A stretch of 64,000 nt of DNA from Tragulus kanchil (Eukaryota; Chordata; Mammalia; Artiodactyla; Tragulidae), in the NCBI GenBank assembly GCA_022376925.1, contig JAIOJX010000031.1:142990854-143054853 (forward strand), written 5' to 3'. The notes below the pieces were generated by a model. The model had not been told where the DNA came from. It did no database searches and was given only the letters and a program-made list of their open reading frames with translations. Positions 4,501-64,000 of the stretch are shown in pieces. Positions within the stretch are counted from its first letter, which is position 1. Each line of letters begins with the position of its first letter. The translations under genes were made by a program, and so were the position numbers.

Positions 4501-4839
4501 AAAGTGCGTTTCCTCAATGCACAGATTTTAAGTCTTTGACAAAACATGTATTTATCCTGCTGATTGTGCTCATTTGTCACAAGCTCCTTTGGCCTAGCCA
4601 TTAGCCGTACAAAGTGTTCAGGTATGCATCAGAAAAGTGTGAAAACCACCTTAAGAAAATTTCAAATTGGTCCTGTGCAGTCGTAATGTTCAGCCATATT
4701 ATTTTTCAAGTGCTTACTGACAAGTTCCCAGATACATAATTTTATCTTAATTCTATTCATTCTTCTTTTCCTTTTAGAAAAGATCTGGTATCAGGACAGT
4801 TTTGGTCATAAGCAACAGGAGACAAATGGTTTATTAGCC

Positions 4840-4999
4840 AACAGTTCTCAAAGTATGGTCCATGTGCCAGAAGCAGCAGCATCTCCTGGAAAATTGCCTG
4901 ACATGTAAGCTTTGGGTCCCTATCCTAGACCTCCTTTCAGCAGTCTGTATTTTAATAAGCTCCCTAAGTGATTTGATGCACATCAAATTCTGAGAACCC
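4840..4999 (+). mobile_element. MER5A-type hAT nonautonomous DNA transposon
   Basis: The sequence runs from CAACAGTTCTCAAAGTATGGTCC to a complementary end ATTCTGAGAACCCGGG, through AGCAGCATCTCCTGG, AGCAGTCTGTATTTTAA and GTGATTTGATGCACATC. This is the MER5A layout of an old eutherian nonautonomous hAT element with short terminal inverted repeats. It lies in the left copy of the 4.5-6.5 kb duplication. Confidence 0.75.
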
Positions 5000-5841
5000 G
5001 GGTCTTGAACAAGAGCTCCAAAGAATGAGATTGGTTCATACGACTGAAAAGTTCATGGGTATGTGAGGCTTCAAACATGACTGCATCCAGGTGTGCAAAC
5101 AATGTCATCAAGGACCTGGCACCGATTTTTCTTCCTCCCTCCAGAATGGCTGAACTCTAAGATAACATCTCCCTATGTGGTGGCAAGATGTCAGCAACTC
5201 CAGACTTATATCCCAGGCTTCTGACTGCCACACAAGAGAAAGGATGCTTTCCCCCCAGCAGCTTCAACAAAAGTCTCAGGATCAAGTCCCATTTGCTCTC
5301 ACTGGGTTCTAGCCCAGGCCTTGTGCCTTCCCTGAATTTATCATAGGAGCCTGAGGATATAAAACTCTGAGTCATGATTTACACTTTGGAGAGCTTGAAC
5401 TCTAAAGCCATGGAGAGAGAAAGTGAGGAGGCACAGCTGACCATATAAAATCCAGCACAGGTGGAGGAAAACAGAAGAACGGAGGCTAGCCAAATAGAAA
5501 CAAAGTGCGTTTCCTCAATGCACAGATTTTAAGTCTTTGACAAAACATGTATTTATCCTGCTGATTGTGCTCATTTGTCACAAGCTCCTTTGGCCTAGCC
5601 ATTAGCCGTACAAAGTGTTCAGGTATGCATCAGAAAAGTGTGAAAACCACCTTAAGAAAATTTCAAATTGGTCCTGTGCGGTCGTAATGTTCAGCCATAA
5701 TATTTTTCAAGTGCTTACTGACAAGTTCCCAGATACATAATTTTATCTTAATTCTATTCATTCTTCTTTTCCTTTTAGAAAAGACCTGGTATCAGGACAG
5801 TTTTGGTCATAAGCAACAGGAGACAAATGGTTTATCAGCCA

Positions 5842-6001
5842 ACAGTTCTCAAAGTATGGTCCATGTGCCAGAAGCAGCAGCATCTCCTGGAAAATTGCCT
5901 GACATGTAAGCTTTGGGTCCCTATCCTAGACCTCCTTTCAGCAGTCTGTATTTTAACAAGCTCCCTAAGTGATTTGATGCATATCAAATTCTGAGAACCC
6001 G
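5842..6001 (+). mobile_element. MER5A-type element, duplicate copy
   Basis: Second copy of the element at 4840-4999 with two or three substitutions (AATAAGC/AACAAGC, CACATC/CATATC). It arises from the 1001-bp duplication and is not an independent insertion. Confidence 0.75.
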
Positions 6002-6570
6002 GGTCTTGAACAAGAGCTCCAAAGAATGAGATTGGTTCATACGACTGAAAAGTTCATGGGTATATGAGGCTTCAAACATGACTGCATCCAGGTGTGCAAA
6101 CAATGTCATCAAGGACCTGGCACCGATTTTTCTTCCTCCCTCCAGAATGGCTGAACTCTAAGATAACATCTCCCTATGTGGTGGCAAGATGTCAGCAACT
6201 CCAGGCTTATATCCCAGGCTTCTGACTGCCACACAAGAGAAAGGATGCTTTCCCCCCAGCAGCTTCAACAAAAGTCTCAGGATCAAGTCCCATTTGCTCT
6301 CACTGGGTTCTAGCCTAGGCCTTGTGCCTTCCCTGAATTTATCATAGGAGCCTGAGGATATAAAACTCTGAGTCATGATTTACACTTTGGAGAGCTTGAA
6401 CTCTAAAGCCATGGAGAGAGAAAGTGAGGAGGCACAGCTGACCATATAAAATCCAGCACAGGTGGAGGAAAACAGAAGAACGGAGGCTAGCCAAATAGAA
6501 ACAAAATGTCCTTGGTCTTCCAACAAACTCCAGATTAAGGAAAGGGTAGCTTCCTGAATCCTCACGTCTC

Positions 6571-7242
6571 AAAGATCATGGCATCTGGTCCCATCATTTC
6601 ATGGCAAATAGATGGGCAAATAATGGAAACACGAACAGATTTTATTTTCTTGGGCTCCAAAATCATTGTGGATGGTGACCACAGCCATGAAATTAAAAGA
6701 TACTGGCCCTTGGAAGGAAGACTGTGACAGACCTAGACAGCATGTTCAAAAGCAGAGATATCACTTTGACAACAAAAGTCATTACAGTCAAATCTATGGT
6801 TTTCCCAGCAGTCATGTATGGATGTGAGAGTTGGACCATAAAGAAGGCTGAGCACTGAAGAATTGATGTCTTTGAACTGTGGAGTTGGAAAAGACTCTTG
6901 AGAGTCCCTTGGACTACAAGGAGATCAAACCAGTCAATCCTAAAGGAAATAAACCCTGAATATTCATTAGAAGGAATGATGCTGAAGCTCAAGATCCAGT
7001 ACTTTGGCCATCTGATGTGAAGAGACAACTCACTGGAACAGAATCTGATGTTGGGAAAAACAGAAAGCAAAAGGAGAAGGGGACAACAGAGGACAAGATA
7101 GCTGGATGGCATCACTGAGTCAATGGACATGAATTTGAACAAGCTTCGGGCAATGGTGAAGGACAAGGAAGCCTGGCATGCTGCAGTCTATGGGGTTGCA
7201 AAGAGTCAGACACAACTGAATGACTGAGCTGAACTAAACTGA
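6571..7242 (+). mobile_element. BovB LINE 3' fragment
   Basis: The sense strand matches the end of BovB ORF2 and its 3' end: CATCTGGTCCCATCATTTCA, GGGCTCCAAAATCATTGTGG, CAGCCATGAAATTAAAAGA and CAAAAGCAGAGATATCAC, ending in GCAAAGAGTCAGACACAACTG and GACTGAGCTGAACTAAACTGA. BovB is an RTE-clade retrotransposon. This is a 5'-truncated, frame-broken relic. The 157-codon frame on the opposite strand (6693-7166) is an antisense artefact. Confidence 0.9.
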
Positions 7243-7504
7243 GATACTAAAGATGGAAGCCCACCCCTTTCCTCCCACCCTCTTCCATGGACCCTCTCTG
7301 GCTTCTCAATTAATGCAAATAGAGGAAAATTAGTTCTTAATAAATGCAGTCCCAAAGCCTTAGGAAGTGAACCAGGAGAGATGTCTTATCAAGTGCTTCT
7401 TTATAAGACTGTTCCTAGTCTCACTTACTGTTTGTTTGTACTTTGCGCTCTATATTGGTACAGCGGTGATGTTTAATTCCTCCTGTACCTTGAGAGCTGT
7501 ATAC

Positions 7505-9677
7505 AAAACCTGGCACTGACCAAGGCCTACATGTCTCTAAATAAAGAGAGCTTCTAAAGATTAACAGCGGGGAGGAGTCTAGAAAAGATCTCCCCAAGGA
7601 GCACTAGGTGAGGCTCCACACGGATGGGGAAGGCAGCCATCTTTGACTCCATCGCCTCCCTGAGTAGACAGCCTTTCATTTCCTGTAGCTCACAGAGGAA
7701 CTTATTTAGCAAAGGAATAAAGAACTCGGGTACACAGTTTGGCTTTCATCTTCAAACCAAGACTGAAACTTTGAGTCGTCATAGTTGTGCCACCTCAGCA
7801 GTCCAAATGCAGTGTTCTATAAAAGAGAGAGAAGAAAGAAAACTTTATCCCCTCCCTGTAGCATCATCTCTGTACAGAACAAGACATAGATGTTTTCCTT
7901 TGGGGGAACAAATGAAAACTCTCAGTGAGTAATCTCACTCTAACTTGAGAACAACTATCAAGAACTATCTCATCAAATGCCTCTTATAACACAATTCCTG
8001 GTCTAGCTTGTTGTGTGTTTTTGCCCTGCCTTCTATCACTGGGATCTCCCCAAGGACGGGGTGATGTTTAACCACCTCCTGTATGTTCAGTGCTGCACAC
8101 GAAATTGGCAATGAGTCAATGTTGTACATATAATACTTACATTAAGTGAAGAGTGTCCTGTTTCCCATATTTGCTTTCTACTATTAAGTAGCTCCCTTCC
8201 AGTATACACTTGGATGTTCCCTGGTTTCTACCCAGCAACACTTTTCCCTCATCACCAGTCATGGTGATTACAAGATAGACAGTTTTAAGGACTCCCTAAT
8301 GCCACCTTTCTCTCTTCTACCATCAAGTTAGGGAAGGATGACCTTGAGACATTTTTTACACCCAACTCCCTCATATGACCACTAGAGGGAAGCAGAGAAC
8401 ACAACGATGGCGCAATGACCATTTCCTCCACCCTTTGTCTTCAGCTCTCCAAGTCTCAATCGCCTTAGCCTTCACCCTTCTGTTAACTTTGGTTGGATGG
8501 GTGCAAGTTTCAGTATGGGACAGACTGCTGCGTTTTAGAACAGGGAAAAAATCATTCCTTTCTTTCTGATTTTTCATGAGATTCTGAGCAAAACCTGGCA
8601 CTAAAGGCCTACATGTCTCTAAATAAAGAGAGCTTCTAAAGATTAACAGCGGGGAGGAGTCTAGAAAAGATCTCCCCAAGGAGCACTAGGTGAGGCTCCA
8701 CACGGATGGGGAAGGCAGCCATCTTTGACTCCATCGCCTCCCTGAGTAGACAGCCTTTCATTTCCTGTAGTTCACAGAGGAACTTATTTAGCAAAGGAAT
8801 AAAGAACTCGGGTACACAGTTTGGCTTTCATCTTCAAACCAAGACTGAAACTTTGAGTCGTCATAGTTGTGCCACCTCAGCAGTCCAATTGCAGTGTTCT
8901 ATAAAAGAGAGAGAAGAAAGAAAACTTTATCCCCTCCCTGTAGCATCATCTCTGTACAGAACAAGACATAGATGTTTTCCTTTGGGGGAACAAATGAAAA
9001 CTCTCAGTGAGTAATCTCACTCTAACTTGAGAACAACCATCAAGAACTATCTCATCAAATGCCTCTTATAACACAATTCCTGGTCTAGCTTGTTGTGTGT
9101 TTCTGCCCTGCCTTCTATCACTGGGATCTCCCCAAGGATGGGGTGATGTTTAACCACCTCCTGTATGTTCAGTGCTGCACACGAAGTTGGCAATGAGTCA
9201 ATGTTGTACATATAATACTTACATTAAGTGAAGAGTGTCCTGTTTCCCATATTTGCTTTCTACTATTAAGTAGCTCCCTTCCAGTATACACTTGGATGTT
9301 CCCTGGTTTCTACCCAGCAACACTTTTCCCTCATCACCAGTCATGGTGATTACAAGATAGACAGTTTTAAGGACTCCCTAATGTCACCTTTCTCTCTTCT
9401 ACCATCAAGTTAGGGAAGGATGACCTTGAGACATTTTTTACACCCAACTCCCTCATATGACCACTAGAGGGAAGCAGAGAACACAACGATGGAGCAATGA
9501 CCATTTCCTCCACCCTTTGTCTTCAGCTCTCCAAGTCTCAATCATCGCTTTAGCCTTCACCCTTCTGTTAACTTTGGTTGGATGGGTGCAAGTTTCAGTA
9601 TGGGACAGACTGCTGCGTTTTAGAACAGGGAAAAAATCATTCCTTTCTTTCTGATTTTTCATGAGATTCTGAGCAAA
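7505..9677 (+). repeat. Direct tandem duplication, ~1083-bp unit, junction near 8588
   Basis: Left copy about 7505-8590, right copy about 8588-9677. The offset goes from 1082 to 1085 because of an ATC insertion near 9541-9546. The AAAACCTGGCACT phrase at the start of each copy is followed by a 3-4 base length difference. The content was not identified: it has AATAAAG motifs and a 102-codon open frame (7624-7932 and 8706-9014) that differs by one residue between copies and has no recognised domain. Confidence 0.95.
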
Positions 9678-10105
9678 AAGTCATTTCATTGGGGGAGCCA
9701 AATTACTCAAAGTTTACAAAATGCATATTTTTAAGTTTTGCTATGGCCTTTCCCTTCAAAAAGATTTTTAAAAATCTTATCTACCTACATTAGGCTACAG
9801 CCCTCCCTTCTGAAGACCTTTCCTGTAAGATCTTTAACTGAGCTATTCTATCACTCCCTCCGGTCTCCATTCTTCTCCTGATCCAAAATCCAGTCTGGGA
9901 GAAAGCTCCCGTTGGAAGGATAATTAAAGTAGATGAACAAATCCTTCAGTCTCAGTTAATCCCAGTAAGTCTAATTCAGCTCTTATAGATGGAGGGATAA
10001 GTATGTTCTCCCACCAGAGTCCTTGATAGCTGGACTGTAGCCTACACCAATAAATCACTTCCCAGATAAACCAAGGTTCTACATAAATAAAATCCAATTT
10101 GGTTT
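9678..10105. other. No feature recognised
   Basis: AT-rich unique sequence with no known repeat or supported coding frame. It ends at the left target-site duplication of a Bov-tA at 10106-10117. Confidence 0.3.
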
Positions 10106-10159
10106 AGGTTTGATCCAGGGGCTTCCCAGATTGTGCTAGTGGTAAAGAATCTGCCTCCC

Positions 10160-13675: not shown

Positions 13676-13868
13676 AGAATGAATGGATGGCAGGTTCTCT
13701 ACTTCAAAACCTCTCCTCACCACCCTCAGGAAAAACCTATGACTGCCTCCTTTGCAATTTCACAGACCATTAGTCTTCTTTATCTAGGCTTCCATTCAAA
13801 AATTACTGAGTACCAACCATATACAAAGAATTTATAGCACATCACATAACATAGTTATACACTTACCT

Positions 13869-14030
13869 TGTTGTTCAGTCACTTAAGTCATGTCTGATTC
13901 TTTACAACCCCATGGACTGTAGCACGCCAGGTTTTCCTAGTCTTTACTGTCTCCTAGATTTTGCTCGGATCCACATCTATTGAGTTGGTGATGCTATCTA
14001 ACCAATTCATCCTCTTCACTTACCTATCTC
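13869..14030 (-). mobile_element. Bov-A / BovB 3' end, antisense
   Basis: The plus strand reads TTGTTGTTCAGTCACTTAAG, CTTTACAACCCCATGGACTG, AGCACGCCAGG, TTGAGTTGGTGATGC and ACCAATTCATCCTC. This is the reverse complement of the BovB/Bov-A 3' end. It is repeated at 15038-15198 through the duplication. Confidence 0.85.
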
Positions 14031-14166
14031 CACTCTAAGGAATGAATTTCTTAAGGAGAGGAATGACTTATTCATTGAATGGCTCCAACAATTAGGACAA
14101 TATTGGAGGTGCTTATTTAAATGGGTTCATTTAAATGACTGCATATCTGGGGACATGTTGGAAGAG

Positions 14167-14382
14167 GGGCTTCCTGGTGGCTCAATGGTAAAGAATTCGT
14201 CTGCCAATGCAGAAGAGTCGGGTTCCATCTCTGGGTTGGGAAGATTGCTGGAGAAGGAAATGGCAACCCCCTCCAGTATTCTTGCCTGGGAAATCCCATG
14301 GGCAGAGAAGCCTGATGGGCTACAGTCCAAGAGGGCACAAAAGAGCTGGACATGACTTAACGACTAAATAACAAGAACAAAG
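14167..14382 (+). mobile_element. Bov-tA SINE
   Basis: Head GGGCTTCCTGGTGGCTCAATGG, CTGCCAATGCAG, GGTTCCATCTCTGGG, CTGGAGAAGGAAATGGCAAC, CTCCAGTATTCTTGCCTGGG and tail ACTTAACGACTAAATAACAAG. It is a near full-length, relatively young copy. Confidence 0.93.
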
Positions 14383-14539
14383 AAGAGAGACACGATTTGT
14401 TTCCTTATTTTATTTATAACTGAAAGCATATTTTAATTGCTTTTATAATAGATTTTTAAATTTAAATACCTAGTTTGAACAAGTCTATATATAAAGGGGT
14501 GGTTTCATACCTTGCAGGTGGACGTGCACATCAGTAGGC

Positions 14540-14845
14540 CTTTCCCAAGGCCCTGAGAATCCATTTTTCCCTGAGAATCTATCCTAAGGGAGGAAAAGGT
14601 GCCCAGAGGAGGCCCGTGCCTTTAGTGTTTATAGTAACGTGTGGTTAGAAAAAACATGATCAAATATTCAGTGTGGAACTATGCAGTCATGAAGATCATT
14701 GGTTAAAATATTTAAGAATGTCAAAAGATTTTCAAGGTCTGGTATTAGTTGAAAAAAGTGATGAAAAACAGTATTCCCAGTGTGATTTTGATAAGGAAAA
14801 AAGAACATACACAAGTACACACAGATGAATGAATTATATAGCCAT
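14540..14845 (+). mobile_element. Old L1/HAL1-like relic
   Basis: GAATCTATCCTAAGGGAGG, GTGTTTATAGTAACGTGTGG, AACATGATCAAATATTCAGTGTGG and CTATGCAGTCATGAAGATCATTGG follow the order of the ancient L1/HAL1 end of ORF2. It is non-coding. It repeats at 15708-16013. Confidence 0.4.
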
Positions 14846-15037
14846 AATATTACCAGTGCTTAAGCTTGGATATAGTATTAATATCATGTTGTTGTTGCTT
14901 AGTTCCTATGACTGCCTCCGTTGCAATTCCACAGACCATTAGTCTTCTTTATCTAGGCTTTCATTCAAAAATTACTGAGTACCACCCATATACAAAGAAT
15001 TTATAGCACATCACACAACATAGTTATACACTTACCT

Positions 15038-15198
15038 TGTTGTTCAGTCACTAAGTCGTGTCTGATTCTTTACAACCCCATGGACTGTAGCATGCCAGGT
15101 TTTCCTAGTCTTTACTGTCTCCTAGATTTTGCTCGGATCCACATCTGTTGAGTTGGTGATGCTATCTAACCAATTCATCCTCTTCACTTACCTATCTC
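15038..15198 (-). mobile_element. Bov-A / BovB 3' end, duplicate copy
   Basis: Second copy of 13869-14030, from the 1169-bp duplication, with a one-base deletion and two substitutions. Confidence 0.85.
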
Positions 15199-15334
15199 CA
15201 CTCTAAGGAATGAATTTCTTAAGGAGAGGAATGACTTATTCATTGAATGGCTCCAACAATTAGGACAATATTGGAGGTGCTTATTTAAATGGGTTCATTT
15301 AAATGACTGCATATCTGGGGACATGTTGGAAGAG

Positions 15335-15550
15335 GGGCTTCCTGGTGGTTCAATGGTAAAGAATTCGTCTGCCAATGCAGAAGAGTCGGGTTCCATCTCT
15401 GGGTTGGGAAGATTGCTGGAGAAGGAAATGGCAACCCCCTCCAGTATTCTTGCCTGGGAAATCCCATGGGCAGAGAAGCCTGATGGGCTACAGTCCAAGA
15501 GGGCACAAAAGAGCTGGACATGACTTAACGACTAAATAACAAGAACAAAG
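15335..15550 (+). mobile_element. Bov-tA SINE, duplicate copy
   Basis: Second copy of 14167-14382; a GGCTCAATGG to GGTTCAATGG change is the main difference. Confidence 0.93.
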
Positions 15551-16051
15551 AAGAGAGACACGATTTGTTTCCTTATTTTATTTATAACTGAAAGCATATT
15601 TTAATTGCTTTTATAATAGATTTTTAAATTTAAATACCTAGTTTGAACAAGTCTATATATAAAGGGGTGGTTTCATACCTTGCAGGTGGACGTGCACATC
15701 AGTAGGCCTTTCCCAAGGCCCTGAGAATCCATTTTTCCCTGAGAATCTATCCTAAGGGAGGAAAAGGTGCCCAGAGGAGGCCCGTGCCTTTAGTGTTTAT
15801 AGTAACGTGTGGTTAGAAAAAACATGATCAAATATTCAGTGTGGAACTATGCAGTCATGAAGATCATTGGTTAAAATATTTAAGAATGTCAAAAGATTTT
15901 CAAGGTCTGGTATTAGTTGAAAAAAGTGATGAAAAACAGTATTCCCAGTGTGATTTTGATAAGGAAAAAAGAACATACACAAGTACACACAGATGAATGA
16001 ATTATATAGCCATAATATTACCAGTGCTTAAGCTTGGATATAGTATTAATA

Positions 16052-16098
16052 TCATGTTGTTGTTGCTTAGTTGTTAAGTCATGTCTGACTCTAACATG
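16052..16098 (-). mobile_element. Bov-A terminal fragment, antisense
   Basis: TGTTGTTGTTGCTTAGTTG and TTAAGTCATGTCTGACTCT are the reverse complement of a Bov-tA 3' end. The rest of the element is missing. It lies about 30 bases before an intact Bov-tA and repeats at 17195-17241. Confidence 0.7.
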
Positions 16099-16130
16099 GT
16101 ACTGAATATAGGGGAGCCTGTGCTTTGTCA

Positions 16131-16343
16131 GGGCCTCCCTGGTGGCTCTGCGGTAAAGAATGTGCCTGTAATGTAGGAACCACAGGAGACATGGATTTGA
16201 TCCCTGGGTCCATAAGATGCCTTGGAGGAGAGCATGGCAACTCACTCCAGTATTTTTGCCTGGAGTGTTCCCATGGACAGAGGAGACTGGCAGGCTACAG
16301 TCCATTAAGTCACAAAGAGTAGGACATGACAAAAGCAACTTAG
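16131..16343 (+). mobile_element. Bov-tA SINE
   Basis: GGGCCTCCCTGGTGGCTCTG, GGTAAAGAATGTGCC, TGATCCCTGGGTCC, CTCACTCCAGTATTTTTGCC and AGTCCATTAAGTCACAAAGAG mark a moderately diverged copy. It repeats at 17274-17486. Confidence 0.9.
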
Positions 16344-16349
16344 TTGGGT

Positions 16350-17079
16350 GATGAGGGAACACAGTATCTGGTAACTCCCTTTTTTCTGCTCAATTTTGCT
16401 GTGACCTTAAAGAATAAAGTCTATATTAAATGTATTACTTTGATAATAAGAAAAAATATAACTAACTAAAAGAAAAATACAAAACCTGTCTCAAGAATTC
16501 GAGAAGATCAAAGCAGGAATGAGTTATCTGAAGACATCAGAGAAGTCTGCCATGCTGACAGAAGGCAGCCTAACCCAGAGAGCCTTAAAGTCCTGGATGG
16601 ACCTGCTTGCCTCCTCCCCTGCCCCTGCCAGGTAAGCACCCTTGTATGTTCCTGAGAGAAGGGAGAACATTCGTTCAGTTGTACACACACAGGCACACCT
16701 AAAGGTACGTTCTCTGTTCCTTCCTTACACACACACCACCTCCCTCCATGTGCAAAGGAGAAACCATCCTAAAACCCTTTTCCAGATACCCTGTTAGAAA
16801 ATCTAGCCCATGTGACCCTATGCTTCCAGGAAGCCAGATCAGGAAAGTACTCTGGGGGTTTCAGGCTTCATTTTTATGAGTCCATAACACACATCTATTA
16901 GATGTCAAGACTTTGACAGGCATTTTTTCCTTGGCGGGGGGCACGGGGAAGGTGTTTTGAATGAAGCTAGAAATCATTTTACCACTGAGAATATTCCCCC
17001 TTGAGATTAAACCAAGAAAGTTTCAGCTTCTGATTAAACAAAGTAGGGACAATCAAATTCTGGAAGCCCCAGAATAAAG
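16350..17079. other. Unrecognised unique sequence (present twice)
   Basis: About 730 bases with no recognised repeat. A minus-strand 74-codon frame at 16508-16732 survives in the second copy (17652-17876) with several replacements, and lacks domain signals. A short G-run occurs near 16935. Confidence 0.3.
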
Positions 17080-17273
17080 CAGTATTCCCAGTGTGATTTT
17101 GATAAGGAAAAAAGAACATACACAAGTACACACAGATGAGTGAATTATATAGCCATAATGTTACCAGTGCTTAAACCTGGATATAGTATTAATATCATGT
17201 TGTTGTTGCTTAGTTGTTAAGTCATGTCTGACTCTAACATGGTACTGAATATAGGGGAGCCTGTGCTTTGTCA

Positions 17274-22603: not shown

Positions 22604-22649
22604 TAGATCGATGGTCACACCCTTCTCAGGTGGAGGTGAGCAAGGGTCA

Positions 22650-48272: not shown

Positions 48273-48317
48273 GAAAATTTCGAAAAAGAAAGAAAAGCAA
48301 ATAGCCTTAGCAATAAT

Positions 48318-52545: not shown

Positions 52546-53016
52546 AAAAAGGTACTCCTTCACCTGTGTAGATCTATTCCACCCTAAGCTAAAACACAAC
52601 CTACCCAATTGTACACGATAGCCCTGGAGGCCACACATGCTTTGTCTCCTTTTAAAGTATCAGAATATTTTACCAAAAGAAACCACCGAAAAATCAGAAT
52701 TGTGGCACACGGAATTCATATTCCCCCATGGCAGCTGTCATGAATATAATAAGCAGGTGCCCATTTGAGATGGGCCATGTGCTCTCCAGCTCACTGTGGT
52801 CCACTCCTCACCCTACTGTTCGTCACTGGGCCCACTTCGCTCATTGACCTGCCAGGCACTAAGGACATTAAAGTGTGCAACCACTCAAGGATTTCAGGGT
52901 CTAGGATAACACATACTGTCAGAGTTAAGTTTCCTTCTTGCCTCCCTGAAACAGAAAGAAGAGATTCCATGGGATCCAACACTGCTCTCACACAGAGGTT
53001 AAAATGGTGGGATCTG

Positions 53017-53288
53017 GATGGGCTTCTCTGGTGGTCCAGTGGGTAAAGAGTCCGCCTTGCAGTGCAAGGTGCACCGGTTCAATCCCTGGCCAGGGAAGAC
53101 TCCACGTGCTACAGAGTGGCTGGACCGGTGTGTCCGATTACGAGCTAGTACTCTGGAGCGCATGCACCCAGAGCCGGTGTTCTGCAACGAGAGAGGCCAC
53201 TGTGATGGGGGATCCACTCAGGCCAAAGAATAAAGATGGATGAAGATAAATAAATAACAAACCAATAATAGGGGCCAAAATTTTTTTT
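53017..53288 (+). mobile_element. CHR-like SINE, short-tail type
   Basis: GGGCTTCTCTGGTGGTCCAG, TTGCAGTGCAAGGTGC, B box CGGTTCAATCCCTGG, GTGGCTGGACCGGTGTGTCC, GAGCCGGTGTTCTGC and tail ACCAATAATAGGGGCC. A perfect 15-base target-site duplication AAATGGTGGGATCTG lies at 53002-53016 and 53289-53303. It repeats at 54098-54369. Confidence 0.9.
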
Positions 53289-54097
53289 AAATGGTGGGAT
53301 CTGCAGTAAGCTTGCCCTGGGTTGAAAGATTTCATTGATTTTCCACTTCCTGTCTTTATGACCTCCACCTGAAATCTGATCCCCACTCTCTTCTGCCTTT
53401 CCGTTAAGGTTCAGCCTGAAAGGCACTGCTTTCCCTGGCAGGAATCAACCTACACCTTAATACCAAAGCTTTACACCCTATACCAGGAGCCTACTCTCTA
53501 CATGGCAGCTGTTGATGATCTAGATAGGTTTCAGGGAATCTATGCACCTGGCTAGAATGGAATGTAAAATACTATATATGGGTGATTCTATGGTTAGCGG
53601 AAGAAGATAGCTTTCATCAGATTTCCACATGGATTTGCAAACATAAAAGCTGTAAGATTCCACCCTAAGCTAAAACACAACCTACCCAATTGTACACGAT
53701 AGCCCTGGAGGCCACACATGCTTTGTCTCCTTTTAAAGTATCAGAATATTTTACCAAAAGAAACCACCGAAAAATCAGAATTGTGGCACACGGAATTCAT
53801 ATTCCCCCATGGCAGCTGTCATGAATATAATAAGCAGGTGCCCATTTGAGATGGGCCATGTGCTCTCCAGCTCACTGTGGTCCACTCCTCACCCTACTGT
53901 TCGTCACTGGGCCCACTTCGCTCATTGACCTGCCAGGCACTAAGGACATTAAAGTGTGCAACCACTCAAGGATTTCAGGGTCTAGGATAACACATACTGT
54001 CAGAGTTAAGTTTCCTTCTTGCCTCCCTGAAACAGAAAGAAGAGATTCCATGGGATCCAACACTGCTCTCACACAGAGGTTAAAATGGTGGAATCTG

Positions 54098-54369
54098 GAT
54101 GGGCTTCTCTGGTGGTCCAGTGGGTAAAGAGTCCGCCTTGCAGTGCAAGGTGCACCGGTTCAATCCCTGGCCAGGGAAGACTCCACGTGCTACAGAGTGG
54201 CTGGACCGGTGTGTCCGATTACGAGCTAGTACTCTGGAGCGCATGCACCCAGAGCCGGTGTTCTGCAACGAGAGAGGCCACTGTGATGGGGGATCCACTC
54301 AGGCCAAAGAATAAAGATGGATGAAGACAAATAAATAACAAACCAATAATAGGGGCCAAAATTTTTTTT
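54098..54369 (+). mobile_element. CHR-like SINE, duplicate copy
   Basis: Second copy of 53017-53288. Its left target-site duplication reads AAATGGTGGAATCTG, one base different from the right one. Confidence 0.9.
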
Positions 54370-54738
54370 AAATGGTGGGATCTGCAGTAAGCTTGCCCTG
54401 GGTTGAAAGATTTCATTCATTTTCCACTTCCTGTCTTTATGACCTCCACCTGAAATCTGATCCCCACTCTCTTCTGCCTTTCCGTTAAGGTTCAGCCTGA
54501 AAGGCACTGCTTTCCCTGGCAGGAATCAACCTACACCTTAATACCAAAGCTTTACACCCTATACCAGGAGCCTACTCTCTACATGGCAGCTGTTGATGAT
54601 CTAGATAGGTTTCAGGGAATCTATGCACCTGGCTAGAATGGAATGTAAAATACTATATATGGGTGATTCTATGGTTAGCGGAAGAAGATAGCTTTCATCA
54701 GATTTCCACATGGATTTGCAAACATAAAAGCTGTAAGA

Positions 54739-55019
54739 GGGGTTTCCCTGGTGGTCCAGTGGGTTGTGAGTCTGCTTTGCAGTGCAAGGAGCACCTGTTC
54801 AATCCCTGGCTGGGGAAGATCCCGTGTGCCACAGAGTGGCTGGACTGGTGTATCCAGTTATGAGCCAGCACTCTGGAGCATGTGCACCCAGAGTTGGTGC
54901 TCTGCAACGAGAGAGGCCATTGTGATGGGAGGCCCACACAGGCCAACAGAATAAAGATGGATGAAAATAAATAAATGAAGGACCAATAAAAGAAGCCAAA
55001 ATTGAAAAAAAAAAAAAAA
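54739..55019 (+). mobile_element. CHR-like SINE, short-tail type
   Basis: GGGGTTTCCCTGGTGGTCCAG, TTGCAGTGCAAGGAGC, CTGTTCAATCCCTGG, GTGGCTGGACTGGTGTATCC, GAGTTGGTGCTCTGC and tail GACCAATAAAAGAAGCC plus poly(A). The target-site duplication AAAAGCTGTAAGAG is repeated after the tail as AAAAGCTATAAGAG. It repeats at 55950-56228. Confidence 0.88.
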
Positions 55020-55022
55020 AAA

Positions 55023-55591
55023 AGCTATAAGAGCCACTCTTCATAGCATTTATCTATACTACTAATTTCCCCCATGTGGCATTTGCTTTTTAATAGCTTA
55101 TCATTATTATGTTTATTTATGTATCAGGTAAGATCACAGCCATGTTGCAGCAGCAAATAACTCCAGAATCTCAGGAGTTTACAACAACAAATGTTTATTT
55201 CTCACACAATATCCACTCTGGTTCTAGATGACTTCCCCAGGCTGCTGCCTTCCACTGAATGAGTCAGCTCAGACTTTTACAGCAGCATATGCTTCCACAC
55301 TGCTAACAGAGGGATGGAGAATCTCACACCAAGCAATCAACTCCTTCTTTCTAGATGTAAAACATGTCCCCTGCTCTTACATTTCAATGGGCAAAACAGG
55401 TAACAAGCTCTTACCTAATCTAGTGAGGCAAGAAAGTTCTAACCCCATATGCCCAAAAGAAGAGAGGTGAAAATATTAGCAAACAGCACTATTGTACCTG
55501 CTTCCCAGCTGGACCTAAAAGAGGAGACTGTTGACTTAAGTAACTGTGGGAAATGGCATTTTGATAAGAAACTGTAAAGCTAAAGAAAATG
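55023..55591. other. Unrecognised sequence present three times
   Basis: Contains an 80-116 codon frame that starts at 55228, 56433 and 57513 in the three copies. C-run length changes alter where each copy stops. There is no domain signature. GAATCTCAGGAGTTTACAAC and ACAAATGTTTATTTCTCAC resemble an old MER/L2-like repeat, but I cannot name it. Confidence 0.3.
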
Positions 55592-55949
55592 TCTGCAGTA
55601 AGCTTGCCCTGGGTTGAAAGATTTCATTCATTTTCCACTTCCTGTCTTTATGACCTCCACCTGAAATCTGATCCCCACTCTCTTCTGCCTTTCCGTTAAG
55701 GTTCAGCCTGAAAGGCACTGCTTTCCCTGGCAGGAATCAACCTACACCTTAATACCAAAGCTTTACACCCTATACCAGGAGCCTACTCTCTACATGGCAG
55801 CTGTTGATGATCTAGATAGGTTTCAGGGAATCTATGCACCTGGCTAGAATGGAATGTAAAATACTATATATGGGTGATTCTATGGTTAGCGGAAGAAGAT
55901 AGCTTTCATCAGATTTCCACATGGATTTGCAAACATAAAAGCTGTAAGA

Positions 55950-56228
55950 GGGGTTTCCCTGGTGGTCCAGTGGGTTGTGAGTCTGCTTTGCAGTGCAAGG
56001 AGCACCTGTTCAATCCCTGGCTGGGGAAGATCCCGTGTGCCACAGAGTGGCTGGACTGGTGTATCCAGTTATGAGCCAGCACTCTGGAGCATGTGCACCC
56101 AGAGTTGGTGCTCTGCAACGAGAGAGGCCATTGTGATGGGAGGCCCACACAGGCCAACAGAATAAAGATGGATGAAAATAAATAAATGAAGGACCAATAA
56201 AAGAAGCCAAAATTGAAAAAATAAAAAA
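55950..56228 (+). mobile_element. CHR-like SINE, duplicate copy
   Basis: Second copy of 54739-55019 with a shorter, T-interrupted A tail. Confidence 0.88.
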
Positions 56229-56358
56229 GCTATAAGAGCCACTCTTCATAGCATTTATCTATACTACTAATTTCCCCCATGTGGCATTTGCTTTTTAATA
56301 GCTTATCATTATTATGTTTATTTATGTATCAGGTAAGATCACAGCCATGTTGCAGCAG

Positions 56359-58521
56359 CAAATAACTCCAGAATCTCAGGAGTTTACAACAACAAATGTT
56401 TATTTCTCACACAATATCCACTCTGGTTCTAGATGACTTCCCCAGGCTGCTGCCTTCCACTGAATGAGTCAGCTCAGACTTTTACAGCAGCATATGCTTC
56501 CACACTGCTAACAGAGGGATGGAGAATCTCACACCAAGCAATCAACTCCTTCTTTCTAGATGTAAAACATGTCCCCTGCTCTTACATTTCAATGGGCAAA
56601 ACAGGTAACAAGCTCTTACCTAATCTAGTGAGGCAAGAAAGTTCTAACCCCCATATGCCCAAAAGAAGAGAGGTGAAAATATTAGCAAACAGCACTATTG
56701 TACCTGCTTCCCAGCTGGACCTAAAAGAGGAGACTGTTGACTTAAGTAACTGTGGGAAATGGCATTTTGATAAGAAACTGTAAAGCTAAAGAAAATGAAA
56801 CCGTATATAATCATTGAACTTTAGTTTCACTACATAAATAAAGAGCTATCTAGTGGGAGCCAGGTTTCTGTCAGAGAAAAAAGTTTACAAATAAGCAGGA
56901 AGGTCTGTACGTGCGTCAAGAAGCAACAGTTAGAACCGAATGTGGAACAACAGACTGATTCAAAATCAGAAAGGAATACATCAAGGCAGTATATTGTCAC
57001 CCTTCTCATTCAACTTATATGCTGGGTACCTCATGTGAAATCCTAGGCTGGATAAATCACAAGCTGGAGTCAAGATTTCTGGGAGAAATATCAATAACCT
57101 CAGATATGCAGATGACACTATCCTAATGGTAGAAAATTAAGAAGAACTAAAAAGTCTCTTGATGAAGATGAAAGCTGAGAGTGGAAAAGCTGGCTTAAAA
57201 CTCAACATTCAAAAAAACTAAGATCATGGTATCCAGTCCCATCACTTCATGGCAAACAAACGGGAAAACAGTGAATGCAGTAGCAGATCCTAATTTCTTG
57301 AGCTCCAAAATCACCATGGACAGTGACTGCAGCCATGAAATTAAAAGACACTTGCTCCTTGGAAAGAAAGCTATGACAAACCTAGACAATGACATCATTT
57401 TGCCGATAAAGGTCCATATAGACAAAGCTATGGTTTTTCAAATAACTCCAGAATCTCAGGAGTTTACAACAACAAATGTTTATTTCTCACACAATATCCA
57501 CTCTGGTTCTAGATGACTTCCCCAGGCTGCTGCCTTCCACTGAATGAGTCAGCTCAGACTTTTACAGCAGCATATGCTTCCACACTGCTAACAGAGGGAT
57601 GGAGAATCTCACACCAAGCAATCAACTCCTTCTTTCTAGATGTAAAACATGTCCCCTGCTCTTACATTTCAATGGGCAAAACAGGTAACAAGCTCTTACC
57701 TAATCTAGTGAGGCAAGAAAGTTCAAACCCCCCATATGCCCAAAAGAAGAGAGGTGAAAATATTAGCAAACAGCACTATTGTACCTGCTTCCCAGCTGGA
57801 CCTAAAAGAGGAGACTGTTGACTTAAGTAACTGTGGGAAATGGCATTTTGATAAGAAACTGTAAAGCTAAAGAAAATGAAACCGTATATAATCATTGAAC
57901 TTTAGTTTCACTACATAAATAAAGAGCTATCTAGTGGGAGCCAGGTTTCTGTCAGAGAAAAAAGTTTACAAATAAGCAGGAAGGTCTGTACGTGCGTCAA
58001 GAAGCAACAGTTAGAACCGAATGTGGAACAACAGACTGATTCAAAATCAGAAAGGAATACATCAAGGCAGTATATTGTCACCCTTCTCATTCAACTTATA
58101 TGCTGGGTACCTCATGTGAAATCCTAGGCTGGATAAATCACAAGCTGGAGTCAAGATTTCTGGGAGAAATATCAATAACCTCAGATATGCAGATGACACT
58201 ATCCTAATGGTAGAAAATTAAGAAGAACTAAAAAGTCTCTTGATGAAGATGAAAGCTGAGAGTGGAAAAGCTGGCTTAAAACTCAACATTCAAAAAAACT
58301 AAGATCATGGTATCCAGTCCCATCACTTCATGGCAAACAAACGGGAAAACAGTGAATGCAGTAGCAGATCCTAATTTCTTGAGCTCCAAAATCACCATGG
58401 ACAGTGACTGCAGCCATGAAATTAAAAGACACTTGCTCCTTGGAAAGAAAGCTATGACAAACCTAGACAATGACATCATTTTGCCGATAAAGGTCCATAT
58501 AGACAAAGTTATGGTTTTTCC
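56359..58521 (+). repeat. Direct tandem duplication, 1080-bp unit, junction at 57438/57439
   Basis: Left copy 56359-57438, right copy 57439-58521. Changes are TCTAACCCCC/TCAAACCCCCC and AAAGCTATGG/AAAGTTATGG. CA is shared at the join. The unit includes about 550 bases of BovB ORF2. The segment from CAAATAACTCC is a third copy, starting at 55149, 56359 and 57439. Confidence 0.98.
56918..57438 (+). mobile_element. BovB ORF2 reverse-transcriptase segment, left copy
   Basis: The sense strand encodes part of the BovB reverse transcriptase. YADD, the catalytic motif, is encoded at 57105-57116, in the context LRYADDTIL. A stop (TAA) follows soon after at GAAAATTAAGAAG, and another interrupts the region before YADD, so this is a dead copy. 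The segment ends abruptly at the duplication junction. Confidence 0.9.
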
Positions 58522-59417: not shown

Positions 59418-59762
59418 GGGTCCCTACAGGCCTGAAAAATGAAGGAAGAGACAAAGATTCCTTCCTCCTCAACCCTGCTGTCTGGGAAGGGGATGGGGGA
59501 CTGAGGCCTGAAGTCTCAGCCCTGGCATCTGGGCCCACTGTCTCTCAGGAACAGCTGTTCCTCTATCCCTCACCACTCACAGGTCAGAAGGGTTTGTGAA
59601 GGTGGATCTGAGCAGATGACCCCCAGGGCCCACAGGTCAAACACAGGCTGGGACAGGTGAGGACCCAAGGAGGAGCAGTTGCTGTTGGCTGGGCTGGGCC
59701 TCCTCGGGATTATTTGTTTAAGTTTCACGGAAATGATTTTAATTTAGTGGATCTATGCTTTA
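59418..59762. other. GC-richer unrecognised sequence
   Basis: About 345 bases, richer in GC than the surroundings, with a 61-codon plus-strand frame (59414-59599). No repeat or domain was recognised. Confidence 0.3.
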
Positions 59763-59797
59763 TGTTTAGTTTTTCAAAAAAAAAAAGATTTTCAATT

Positions 59798-60062
59798 GGG
59801 CTTCCCTGGTGGTCCAGTGGGTAAAGAGTTCGCCTTGCAGTGCAGGGGGCACCAGTTCAATCCCTGGCCTGGGAAGATCCCACGTGATGAGGAACGGCTG
59901 GACCAGTGGGTTCAATTACAAGTCAGCGCTCTGGAGTGCATGCACCCAGAGCCAGTGCTCTGCAACAAGAGAGGCCACTGCGATGGGAGGCCCACACAGG
60001 CCAAAGAATAAAGATGGGTGAAAAATAAAAAACGATGGCTTAGAGGCAGAAATAAATAAATA
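59798..60062 (+). mobile_element. CHR-like SINE, short-tail variant
   Basis: GGGCTTCCCTGGTGGTCCAG, TTGCAGTGCAGGGGGCACC, GGAACGGCTGGACCAGTGGG, GAGCCAGTGCTCTGC and GCCAAAGAATAAAGATGGG; the tail then diverges (CGATGGCTTAGAGGC). The target-site duplication AAAGATTTTCAAT at 59784-59796 matches AAAGATGTTCAAT at 60063-60075 with one mismatch. It repeats at 60877-61141. Confidence 0.88.
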
Positions 60063-60457
60063 AAAGATGTTCAATCTAGCCTCAGAGTTCCCTAGAGGTT
60101 GTTGATAATAATTTAAGTACTCAATTATTTGGTCTGAGAACAATTGTCAGAGGTCACAGGATTGGCCAGGAGATCCCTATGTCAGCCACCACGACACTTC
60201 CTTCTGCTGTTATTATTTCACTTTATTCTTCCAAACAAATAATACAATCAGAAGTGACTGGAAATGTTAACTCCACCAGAGCATTGCCTCTTACTCATCC
60301 CATCATCTAGCTCATGCCTTATAGGCAATGACTTTATTAGTTCTAAGATTTGCTTTTTGGATCCTTTCAAAGACTTTTTTCCCAAACAGGCAAACGTGAA
60401 TATTCCTATCTGATTTCAGGTTTCTTCTCTTTTTTTTTCTGTTATTTCTTTGAACAG

Positions 60458-60556
60458 GAAATATTTCTCAGATCCCTACAACAGCGGCTATGTTTGTTTT
60501 CACAGGCTAAAATACATTCTGAATTTAGTGACATTTTAGATGAACTAGTGTTTTAA
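60458..60556 (+). other. Candidate terminal exon, left copy
   Basis: A strong acceptor, with a long T/C tract and TTTGAACAG ending at 60457, leads into a frame of 32 codons (EIFLRSLQQRLCLFSQAK, then KIHSEFSDILDELVF at its end) closed by TAA. The sequence is not a repeat I know. A second frame (KYFSDPYNSGYVCF) is also open for 25 codons, so the frame is uncertain. No donor or upstream exon can be linked. Confidence 0.25.
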
Positions 60557-60569
60557 TAATAAGGTCTGC

Positions 60570-60787
60570 GTTCATTTGACAAACAGTTCCTATGGGAGTT
60601 TAAGAACACCTATACGAGGTTGTATCACACAGCAGCTAAAAGGAAAGTGGTAGCTATTCTCGGTAAAGTACGAAAAGATCCACTAACAAGAAATATTAAC
60701 AAGAAATGTATTTATGCTTTGATTAAAAGTGTCCCCAATACTCCAAATTCACTGAGTGCATACAAAGCATATAACACTCTACAGAAA
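60570..60787. other. Unrecognised, possibly 3' UTR of the candidate exon
   Basis: AT-rich, repeat-free sequence following the candidate stop codon. No canonical AATAAA was seen close to a likely end. It repeats at 61652-61871. Confidence 0.2.
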
Positions 60788-60876
60788 TGTATTATCATGC
60801 TTTCGGATTAAAAAGGGGTCCCCCAATAGGTCTAATTTTTGTTTAGTTTTTTTCAAAAAAAAAAAGATTTTCAATT

Positions 60877-61141
60877 GGGCTTCCCTGGTGGTCCAGTGGG
60901 TAAAGAGTTCGCCTTGCAGTGCAGGGGGCACCAGTTCAATCCCTGGCCTGGGAAGATCCCACGTGATGAGGAACGGCTGGACCAGTGGGTTCAATTACAA
61001 GTCAGCGCTCTGGAGTGCATGCACCCAGAGCCAGTGCTCTGCAACAAGAGAGGCCACTGCGATGGGAGGCCCACACAGGCCAAAGAATAAAGATGGGTGA
61101 AAAATAAAAAACGATGGCTTAGAGGCAGAAATAAATAAATA
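60877..61141 (+). mobile_element. CHR-like SINE, duplicate copy
   Basis: Second copy of 59798-60062 from the local duplication. Confidence 0.88.
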
Positions 61142-61539
61142 AAAGATGTTCAATCTAGCCTCAGAGTTCCCTAGAGGTTGTTGATAATAATTTAAGTACT
61201 CAATTATTTGGTCTGAGAACAATTGTCAGAGGTCACAGGATTGGCCAGGAGATCCCTATGTCAGCCACCACGACACTTCCTTCTGCTGTTATTATTTCAC
61301 TTTATTCTTCCAAACAAATAATACAATCAGAAGTGACTGGAAATGTTAACTCCACCAGAGCATTGCCTCTTACTCATCCCATCATCTAGCTCATGCCTTA
61401 TAGGCAATGACTTTATTAGTTCTAAGATTTGCTTTTTGGATCCTTTCAAAGACTTTTTTTTTCCCAAACAGGCAAACGTGAATATTCCTATCTGATTTCA
61501 GGTTTCTTCTCTTTTTTTTTCTGTTATTTCTTTGAACAG

Positions 61540-61638
61540 GAAATATTTCTCAGATCCCTACAACAGTGGCTATGTTTGTTTTCACAGGCTAAAATACATT
61601 CTGAATTTAGTGACATTTTAGATGAACTAGTGTTTTAA
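61540..61638 (+). other. Candidate terminal exon, right copy
   Basis: Second copy of 60458-60556 with a single change, CGG to TGG (Arg to Trp) in the main frame, and synonymous (AGC/AGT) in the alternative KYFSDPY frame. It belongs to the local duplication. Confidence 0.25.
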
Positions 61639-62510
61639 TAATAAGGTCTGCGTTCATTTGACAAACAGTTCCTATGGGAGTTTAAGAACACCTATACGAG
61701 GTTGTATCACACAGCAGCTAAAAGGAAAGTGGTAGCTATTCTCGGTAAAGTACGAAAAGATCCACTAACAAGAAATATTAACAAGAAATGTATTTATGCT
61801 TTGATTAAAAGTGTCCCCCCAATACTCCAAATTCACTGAGTGCATACAAAGCATATAACACTCTACAGAAAGTTACATGCCAAACCAAGAACAACAGGAA
61901 TGGGAGCAGAATGGATGAGAGTCAGGGCTGGGTGGTCAAAGGTGTCATTAGCAGGGTACACTCTGAGCTGGGACAGACCATTAGGCAGCACTGCTTGCTT
62001 CGTGACTGGCATCAGCCCAACTGGTCACTGCCCACTGTGGTTGGGCATTTAAACATTTCACCTGGTCATTGACCTTATCTTTACTATTCAAATATTTCAT
62101 CCAATGAATTTTCTTTGGAAATTAAGCATGTATCTATCCAGAAAAGACTCTACGTGCAACATTTATGTACCTTACTCACAAAAAGAACTCAGAGTCTATG
62201 GCTGTGCTGTGCATAGCTATGAGCCACTGCTTTATAAACCATAGTTTTCCAAAAGCTAGAAGATGATTCTTCAACACTTCCAGCCAGACTCAACATGGAT
62301 CAGGGGTTCCATCTCCTATCTGGGAATGGCCTCTCACTCCGCTGAAGTGGATTAACTCCCTATTGTTCAAATTCCAAATGCGATCTTCCTCCCCAGTCTA
62401 AGTCACTTCAGTACTGACAGAAAGGGAAGGAGGGTCCCTCTAGGATCCTTCCCACCTCAAAGGCTGCACAGGCAAGGACTGCTCATCAGAAATCAACTTT
62501 GACAACTTGT

Positions 62511-62685
62511 AGGGGTTGGCAAACTTTTCTGTAGAGGGCCAGATAAGTGTTTTTGGCTTTGTGGGCTAGATGGTCTCTGTGAATGTTACTCAGCTCCATC
62601 ATCCCAGTGCTGTATGGAAATGAAGGGACGTGGCTGTGTTCCAATAAACTGTCCTTTACAAAAACAGGCCAGTGGCAAGCCATGG
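62511..62685 (+). mobile_element. hAT-Charlie-type nonautonomous DNA transposon
   Basis: AGGGGTTGGCAAACTTTTCTG, AGAGGGCCAGATAAGTG, TTTTTGGCTTTGTGGGC, ATGGTCTCTGTGAATG and GTGGCTGTGTTCCAATAAAC, ending with ACAAAAACAGGCCAGTGG, match the well-known eutherian element that begins GGGTCGGCAAACTTTTTCTG. The 3' terminal repeat is decayed. It repeats at 63687-63861. Confidence 0.8.
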
Positions 62686-63686
62686 CTTATCAGCCACTGA
62701 GGCTGACAACTACTGTTGCCAGAACCTTGTTTAATGCATCACTGGCCAGAGGTATCAAAAACCTAATGCTAGCCATGGACTCTGAGTCCTCGATGAGACT
62801 TTATGGAATAGGAGACCTACACAGAGTAAAGGGCCCCAAAGCAATCTCACTCAGCACTTCCTGGTGACCCCGAAGATAAAGGATTCCCTGATGACGTTGA
62901 TGTTCAACCTCCCATACTCAAAGAAGAAGGAGGTGCACAGAAGCTGGATAAAGCAGGGTAGTTTCCATGTTTGTTCTCCACTCTGAGTTTCTTTCTCTCT
63001 GCACTGAACACTTGTTGTCACAATTTAAATAGGAATACAGAGAACTGAGGGCTTCCCAAGTATCTCAGTGGAGAAAGAAAAGAAGGGAAAATGAGAGTCA
63101 GGGCTGGGTGGTCAAAGGTGTCATTAGCAGGGTACACTCTGAGCTGGGACAGACCATTAGGCAGCACTGCTTGCTTCGTGACTGGCATCAGCCCAACTGG
63201 TCACTGCCCACTGTGGTTGGGCATTTAAACATTTCACCTGGTCATTGACCTTATCTTTACTATTCAAATATTTCATCCAATGAATTTTCTTTGGAAATTA
63301 AGCATGTATCTATCCAGAAAAGACTCTACGTGCAACATTTATGTACCTTACTCACAAAAAGAACTCAGAGTCTATGGCTGTGCTGTGCATAGCTATGAGC
63401 CACTGCTTTATAAACCATAGTTTTCCAAAAGCTAGAAGATGATTCTTCAACACTTCCAGCCAGACTCAACATGGATCAGGGGTTCCATCTCCTATCTGGG
63501 AATGGCCTCTCACTCCGCTGAAGTGGATTAACTCCCTATTGTTCAAATTCCAAATGCGATCTTCCTCCCCAGCCTAAGTCACTTCAGTACTGACAGAAAG
63601 GGAAGGAGGGTCCCTCTAGGATCCTTCCCACCTCAAAGGCTGCACAGGCAAGGACTGCTCATCAGAAATCAACTTTGACAACTTGT

Positions 63687-63861
63687 AGGGGTTGGCAAAC
63701 TTTTCTGTAGAGGGCCAGATAAGTGTTTTTGGCTTTGTGGGCTAGATGGTCTCTGTGAATGTTACTCAGCTCCATCATCCCAGTGCTGTATGGAAATGAA
63801 GGGACGTGGCTGTGTTCCAATAAACTGTCCTTTACAAAAACAGGCCAGTGGCAAGCCATGG
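63687..63861 (+). mobile_element. hAT-Charlie-type element, duplicate copy
   Basis: Second copy of 62511-62685 from the 1176-bp duplication. Confidence 0.8.
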
Positions 63862-64000
63862 CTTATCAGCCACTGAGGCTGACAACTACTGTTGCCAGAA
63901 CCTTGTTTAATGCATCACTGGCCAGAGGTATCAAAAACCTAATGCTAGCCATGGACTCTGAGTCCTCGATGAGACTTTATGGAATAGGAGACCTACACAG

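What the first reader, a model, noticed from the sequence alone, without database searches (positions are those of the whole stretch)
4501..64000. Nineteen direct ~1.0-1.2 kb near-adjacent duplications in one 64-kb window
The sequence repeatedly reaches a point, jumps back about 1.1 kb and replays with few changes. Junctions lie near 5501, 8588, 14904, 17079, 19004, 21424, 26555, 33132, 34986, 36972, 44168, 46787, 49386, 51251, 53656, 55591, 57438, 60839 and 63090. The units share no sequence with one another and cut through SINEs, LINEs and unique DNA alike, so no single mobile element explains them. The narrow length range (1.0-1.21 kb) points to overlapping sequence pieces placed end to end. 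The alternative is a locus shaped by serial template switching, which would be remarkable.
Basis: partly seen in the sequence, partly recalled or inferred. Interest (0 to 1): 0.85.

Follow-up and report, generated by a model that had tools for sequence, protein, structure and literature searches.

The report
Genome-wide unmerged assembly-piece overlaps, not biology
The roughly 1.1-kb stutters are real letters in the file, but they are almost certainly an assembly mistake in which overlapping consensus pieces were laid end to end without removing the overlap, and the same mistake turns up elsewhere in this genome.

Summary
In detail: all 19 junctions are there, and a twentieth (near 303) is cut by the window start. 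The reading "overlapping pieces placed end to end" is right too. The window's assembly became searchable late (3.17 Gb, 32 contigs). Of 18 further 10-kb stretches, 17 carry the same stutter; the exception is mostly satellite. Over 63 complete duplications the offset is 1001-1211 bp (mean 1116, sd 40), and differences between copies pile up at both ends of the overlap. In 16 three-copy zones the odd copy is a piece end in 102 of 103 differences. Spacings of successive overlaps lean to multiples of 256 bp (37 spacings, P = 0.0006; 24 outside the window, P = 0.011; an open period scan gave only P = 0.019). The assembler wtdbg2 works with 1024-bp segments (PMC10989838, passage) and 256-bp bins (recalled). 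I conclude that neighbouring wtdbg2-type consensus units, which share one node, were concatenated unmerged. The assembler is inferred, not documented. This is not a biological feature; about 29% of the sampled bases are redundant.

The parts
1..1418 (+). Overlap 0 (cut by window start): junction near 303; 1-303 repeats as 1121-1418
   Evidence: 96.4% identity, offset 1120
4496..6508 (+). Overlap 1: 4496-5507 repeated as 5497-6508
   Evidence: offset 1001, 98.9%
7504..9678 (+). Overlap 2: 7504-8593 repeated as 8589-9678
   Evidence: offset 1085, 98.5%
13736..16072 (+). Overlap 3: 13736-14904 repeated as 14905-16072
   Evidence: offset 1169, 99.1%
15933..18224 (+). Overlap 4: 15933-17082 repeated as 17076-18224
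   Evidence: offset 1143, 98.6%; shares 140 bp with overlap 3
17892..20115 (+). Overlap 5: 17892-19003 repeated as 19005-20115
   Evidence: offset 1113, 98.4%; three-copy zone of 333 bp with overlap 4
20245..22604 (+). Overlap 6: 20245-21426 repeated as 21425-22604
   Evidence: offset 1180, 99.6%
25347..27744 (+). Overlap 7: 25347-26535 repeated as 26556-27744
   Evidence: offset 1209, 99.9%; 20 unmatched bases at the junction
32004..34233 (+). Overlap 8: 32004-33113 repeated as 33133-34233
   Evidence: offset 1129, 99.0%; 19 unmatched bases at the junction
33828..36119 (+). Overlap 9: 33828-34990 repeated as 34984-36119; the first 90 bp of the second copy are eroded by small deletions
   Evidence: offset 1156, 96.4%; in the 406-bp three-copy zone with overlap 8, 16 of 17 differences lie in the unit start
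35843..38117 (+). Overlap 10: 35843-36987 repeated as 36973-38117
   Evidence: offset 1130, 99.6%; shares 277 bp with overlap 9
43020..45315 (+). Overlap 11: 43020-44165 repeated as 44169-45315
   Evidence: offset 1149, 99.9%
45658..47908 (+). Overlap 12: 45658-46791 repeated as 46779-47908
   Evidence: offset 1121, 99.3%
48273..50502 (+). Overlap 13: 48273-49388 repeated as 49387-50502
   Evidence: offset 1114, 99.8%
50113..52395 (+). Overlap 14: 50113-51251 repeated as 51252-52395
   Evidence: offset 1139, 99.5%; shares 390 bp with overlap 13
52576..54738 (+). Overlap 15: 52576-53657 repeated as 53657-54738
   Evidence: offset 1081, 99.7%
54381..56797 (+). Overlap 16: 54381-55591 repeated as 55592-56797
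   Evidence: offset 1211, 99.3%; shares 358 bp with overlap 15
56359..58520 (+). Overlap 17: 56359-57439 repeated as 57439-58520
   Evidence: offset 1080, 99.7%; shares 439 bp with overlap 16
59759..61871 (+). Overlap 18: 59759-60787 repeated as 60836-61871; 48 unmatched bases between the copies
   Evidence: offset 1077, 99.1%
61915..64000 (+). Overlap 19 (cut by window end): 61915-62824 repeated as 63091-64000; junction near 63090
   Evidence: offset 1176, 99.9%

Best explanation
It is an assembly artefact. A long-read assembler of the wtdbg/wtdbg2 type computes a consensus for each graph edge, i.e. from one 1024-bp node to the next, both nodes included. Neighbouring edge consensuses therefore share one whole node and must be merged over it. 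Here many of those merges failed and the consensuses were written end to end, so the shared node appears twice. Shown here: the duplications, their narrow length, their spread over the assembly, the piece-end error pattern and the 256-bp preference of overlap-start spacings. Inferred: the name of the assembler and the failing step. Later polishing, and the choice of a different allele in each piece, would explain the remaining scattered, transition-rich differences inside the overlaps (inferred).
For: Spread: 17 of 18 fetched 10-kb stretches outside the window, on 12 of the 13 contigs fetched from, hold 1-4 complete duplications each, 45 in all, with the same offsets; the 18th is mostly a satellite array with a unit of about 360 bp. 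Length: 63 complete overlaps, window and stretches together, 1001-1211 bp, mean 1116, sd 40; 67,572 of 72,587 shared 31-mer pairs lie 1000-1249 bp apart and none lie 900-999 bp apart. Piece-end errors: of 316 differences, 117 fall in the first 150 bp and 92 in the last 150 bp of the overlap, against a rotation mean of 42.9 (sd 10.2; 0 and about 1 of 100,000 rotations as high). Three-copy vote: 16 zones of 60 bp or more, odd copy = piece start 57, piece end 45, piece middle 1. Bin preference: 37 overlap-start spacings under 2.6 kb, tested at 256 bp, R = 0.43, phase -2 bp, P = 0.0006; outside the window n = 24, P = 0.011; inside n = 13, P = 0.028. The spacing never falls below 695 bp in 45. PMC10989838 (passage read): wtdbg2 chops reads into 1024-bp segments, merges similar segments into a vertex and connects vertices by adjacency on reads. 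PMC8434745 (passages read): wtdbg2 writes contig layout and edge sequences, and wtpoa-cns then makes the consensus.
Against: The organism and its assembly record are not named, so the use of wtdbg2 is not shown. The wtdbg2 paper is not held; the 256-bp bin, the default node overlap and the merge step are recalled. The mean overlap (1116) exceeds 1024 by 9%. Successive overlaps share up to 439 bp, more than the 256 bp that I recall as the default maximum. A first period scan on the window alone was not significant (14 spacings, P = 0.22), and the scan over periods on all 37 gave P = 0.019 with its peak at 260 bp. The test at 256 bp was run after those scans had shown peaks near it, and the 2.6-kb cut was my choice, so its P values are somewhat flattering. 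Inside the window alone the excess of differences is at the start of the overlap only (44 of 120, against 12 at the end), and only 10 of 18 overlaps are denser at their start.
Confidence: 0.9

Rival explanations
1. An assembly artefact of another making: contigs or local gap-fill assemblies from some other tool that overlap by a fixed length and were concatenated.
For: Spread over the assembly and piece-end errors fit any piece-joining fault. Wtdbg2 use is not documented for this genome in any call.
Against: A fixed overlap near 1.1 kb and a 256-bp preference of spacings are not expected from gap filling or from contig-end overlaps, whose lengths should vary freely (inference). Pieces between complete junctions are 1.84 to 7.2 kb long (45 pieces), too short for contigs of a long-read assembly.
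Confidence: 0.08
2. Two haplotypes of the sequenced animal placed side by side as a false segmental duplication (heterotype false duplication).
For: Inside the window's overlaps the substitutions are transition-rich (63 transitions, 21 transversions, with 37 indels), as allelic differences are. The class is known in vertebrate assemblies (PMC2864568 and PMC9516828, passages read).
Against: Some copies are identical or nearly so (L008 7145-8244 at 100%; 43020-44165 with a single 1-bp indel). Haplotype blocks have no reason to be 1.0-1.2 kb long or to prefer 256-bp steps, nor to carry their differences at the ends.
Confidence: 0.015
3. A real genome with very many recent tandem duplications of about 1.1 kb, made by serial template switching or re-replication.
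For: Duplications are head to tail and near-identical; junction ambiguity of at most 4 bp in the 16 of 18 junctions resolved would be compatible with microhomology.
Against: Offset sd of 40 bp, no copy number above 3 in the window, piece-end error pattern, 256-bp preference and presence in 17 of 18 other stretches. I know of no mechanism with a 256-bp ruler (recalled knowledge).
Confidence: 0.005

Closest known systems
Homotype / heterotype false duplications in genome assemblies (PMC9516828; PMC2864568; passages read)
   Same: Near-identical sequence written twice although the genome holds one copy, in part on one scaffold or at adjacent places; inflates assembly size and can duplicate exons.
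   Different: In the passages read those are driven by haplotype divergence or read errors. Here the length is fixed near 1.1 kb, junctions recur every 1.8-7.2 kb, and spacings prefer multiples of 256 bp.
wtdbg/wtdbg2 fuzzy-Bruijn-graph nodes and edge consensuses (PMC10989838 and PMC8434745, passages read; rest recalled)
   Same: 1024-bp segments as graph vertices; consensus made from edge sequences; neighbouring edges share a node (recalled), the expected size of an unmerged overlap.
   Different: Observed overlaps average 1116 bp, and successive overlaps share up to 439 bp; the assembler of this genome is not documented in any call.

Membership tests
wtdbg2-type unmerged node overlap | Duplicated length narrowly set near the node length (1024 bp, or another multiple of 256) | tested here: met
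   63 complete overlaps, 1001-1211 bp, mean 1116, sd 40; narrow, but 9% over 1024
wtdbg2-type unmerged node overlap | Node starts spaced by multiples of a 256-bp bin | tested here: met
   37 of 45 spacings (those under 2.6 kb): R = 0.43, phase -2 bp, P = 0.0006; outside the window n = 24, P = 0.011. Open period scans: P = 0.019 on 37, P = 0.22 on 14 of the window
wtdbg2-type unmerged node overlap | Spread over the assembly, not local | tested here: met
   17 of 18 stretches of 10 kb
wtdbg2-type unmerged node overlap | Poor consensus at piece ends, good in piece middles | tested here: met
   16 three-copy zones: 102 of 103 odd copies at piece ends
wtdbg2-type unmerged node overlap | Adjacent nodes overlap by no more than the node-overlap setting (recalled default 256 bp) | tested here: inconclusive
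   Shared stretches up to 439 bp; the setting used is unknown and the default is recalled
wtdbg2-type unmerged node overlap | Assembly record names wtdbg/wtdbg2 | not testable with these tools
wtdbg2-type unmerged node overlap | Half read depth over each copy, no read spanning both | not testable with these tools
   no reads held
Heterotype false duplication | Copies differ as two haplotypes do | tested here: not met
   Some copies identical (L008 7145-8244); differences concentrate at piece ends. Interior substitutions are transition-rich, so alleles may contribute
Real tandem duplication by template switching | Local cluster with varied lengths, and differences spread evenly over the copies (my expectation, recalled) | tested here: not met
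   Spread over the assembly, fixed length, differences at the ends

The most novel reading that the evidence does not exclude
A 3.17-Gb assembly of an apparently mammalian genome is inflated by several hundred megabases through one systematic joining fault that can be recognised, and its assembler fingerprinted, from the sequence alone by the 1.1-kb offset and the 256-bp preference of spacings. The same fingerprint may identify other assemblies with the fault.
Probability: 0.75. Interest if true: 0.25.

Novelty: not a real feature. Interest (0 to 1): 0.12.

Why it matters
It has no biological meaning, but it matters for anyone using this assembly. About 29% of the sampled bases are redundant (63 complete overlaps, mean 1116 bp, in 244 kb). 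If the sample stands for the whole, exon counts, repeat counts, tandem-duplication calls, genome size and copy-number estimates from it would be distorted (inference). The spacing test needs no reads.

Tried and rejected
Rejected: local template switching (the pattern is found across the assembly); haplotype side-by-side placement as sole cause (identical copies, fixed length); a mobile element (apart from stretches shared by successive overlaps, the 18 complete overlaps resemble each other only in diverged repeats of about 70-85% identity).

Led nowhere: Rfam scan of the window (0 matches at gathering scores); tRNA scan (one call of undetermined type); open reading frames (36 listed, none followed up). 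The period scan on the window alone (P = 0.22) did not decide. The repeat proxy was too weak to test the claim about SINEs and LINEs. Four paper searches that could have shown this fault in print (13 of 14 listed, 15 of 325, 2 of 2, 15 of 19) listed no title or abstract start that describes it. Of those lists I read passages of PMC2864568, PMC9516828, PMC8434745 and PMC12621783 only, so I do not claim that it is undescribed. Passages of PMC7247394 (12 of 18 places shown), a pipeline built on wtdbg2, mention rare misassemblies of wtdbg2 but not this fault; passages of PMC9848057 report wtdbg2 pangolin assemblies slightly larger than the estimated genome size, without a cause in what I saw. Searches sought wtdbg2's node and bin sizes and ruminant uses. 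The search for ruminant assemblies made with wtdbg2 and the giraffe paper (PMC12621783, passages) did not identify the species.
Full report
Observation. Self-comparison of the window finds all 19 junctions of the finding, plus a twentieth near 303 that the window start cuts. The 18 complete overlaps have offsets of 1001-1211 bp (mean 1127, sd 51). The separation of shared 31-mers is sharp: 18,225 pairs at 1000-1249 bp, 1,598 at 2150-2399 bp, none at 900-999 or 1250-2149 bp, 5 below 900 and 57 at 2400 or more. Only 8 31-mers have a reverse-complement partner, and no 31-mer is present more than three times. Chance is excluded.

Anatomy. The sequence is a chain of pieces. Each piece begins with the overlap shared with the piece before and ends with the overlap shared with the piece after. 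When pieces are short, the two overlaps inside a piece themselves share 140-439 bp (seven places), which creates three-copy zones. I saw no common insert among the 18 junctions printed (by eye; no adapter search was made). Between the solidly matching parts of the copies lie from -4 to +20 bases in 16 of 18 cases; the other two were not resolved by that script. One of those two, the junction near 60839, has 48 unmatched bases in the BLAST alignment.

Where the differences are. In the window 44 of 120 differences lie in the first 150 bp of the overlap against 16.1 expected, and 12 in the last 150 bp (18 complete overlaps). Per overlap the trend is not universal: 10 of 18 are denser at their start. 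With the further stretches added the picture becomes two-sided: 63 overlaps, 316 differences, 117 in the first and 92 in the last 150 bp, against a rotation mean of 42.9. Three-copy zones tell which copy is the odd one. In the window (7 zones) it is a piece start 37 times, a piece end 7 times and a piece middle once. Over all 16 zones of 60 bp or more the counts are 57, 45 and 1. Piece ends are poor and piece middles are good, which is what separately computed consensus pieces look like. Duplicated DNA in a genome has no reason to do this.

Test elsewhere in the assembly. After six unanswered requests, the window's assembly was reached: 3,167,203,957 bases in 32 contigs, the window being C30:142990854-143054853. 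A 900-bp query from the window also gave two weak matches (71% identity) on C17, 1,087 bp apart. I fetched 18 stretches of 10 kb from 13 contigs: 13 of 20 asked for, the other 7 not existing because those contigs are too short, and 5. Two of the 18 were chosen with knowledge: L017, the C17 place, and L018, next to the window. Seventeen of 18 carry 1-4 complete duplications of the same size, 45 in all. The exception, L019 on the 1.5-Mb contig C9, is mostly a satellite array with a period of about 360 bp. Eighteen stretches are a small sample of 3.17 Gb, but they come from 13 contigs, and the pattern is therefore best taken as a property of the assembly, not of a locus.

Which fault. The start-to-start distances of successive overlaps (45) never fall below 695 bp; many lie near 768, 1024, 2048, 2304 and 2560 bp, others fall between. 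Tested at 256 bp, the bin size I recall for wtdbg2, against jitter of half a period either way, the 37 distances under 2.6 kb give P = 0.0006 with phase -2 bp. The 24 outside the window alone give P = 0.011 and the 13 inside P = 0.028. The 8 distances above 2.6 kb were left out of this test, and it was run after open scans had been seen: on the window alone the scan peaked at 257.5 bp and was not significant (14 distances, P = 0.22), and on all 37 it peaked at 260 bp with P = 0.019. Wtdbg2 chops reads into 1024-bp segments that become graph vertices (PMC10989838, passage) and makes its consensus from a layout of edge sequences (PMC8434745, passages). That its index works in 256-bp bins, and that successive edge consensuses are merged over the shared node, is recalled; the wtdbg2 paper itself is not held. 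Node-length settings seen in print are multiples of 256 (2304 in PMC7831173; 1536, 2048, 2304 and 2560 in PMC11087460; passages). I conclude that merges between successive edge consensuses failed at a large share of nodes.

Consequences. The 63 complete overlaps amount to about 70 kb of 244 kb read (29%; partial overlaps not counted). If the sample stands for the whole, several hundred megabases of this assembly are redundant. The interior differences are rich in transitions (63 to 21 in the window) and are best read as alleles fixed differently in the two pieces; this is inference.

Not settled. Contigs up to 297 Mb point to a karyotype of few large chromosomes, no more. Overlaps that share up to 439 bp exceed the node-overlap default that I recall, so either the setting was changed, or read pieces extended the nodes, or a relative of wtdbg2 was used.

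Noticed in passing
L019 (G000:C9:500001-510000), positions 1-5874 and 8845-10000: Satellite array with a unit of about 360 bp on a 1.5-Mb contig; the only fetched stretch without the 1.1-kb duplications.
   Followed up: partly
window junctions listed in parts (18 complete overlaps): DNA within 50 bp of 18 junctions is AT-richer than random places in the window (GC 36.2% against 41.9%, about 2.8 standard errors); possibly merges fail more often in AT-rich sequence.
   Followed up: no
window 4496-20115 against 20245-64000: The first five complete overlaps differ at 10-18 places each, the later ones mostly at 1-6 (one at 13), as if the left part were more heterozygous.
   Followed up: no
G000, whole assembly: Contigs of 297, 294, 292, 249, 229 and 224 Mb: few large chromosomes; the species was not identified.
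   Followed up: no
window 2902-3046: Tandem array with a unit of about 41-50 bp and two to three copies, unrelated to the 1.1-kb overlaps.
   Followed up: no
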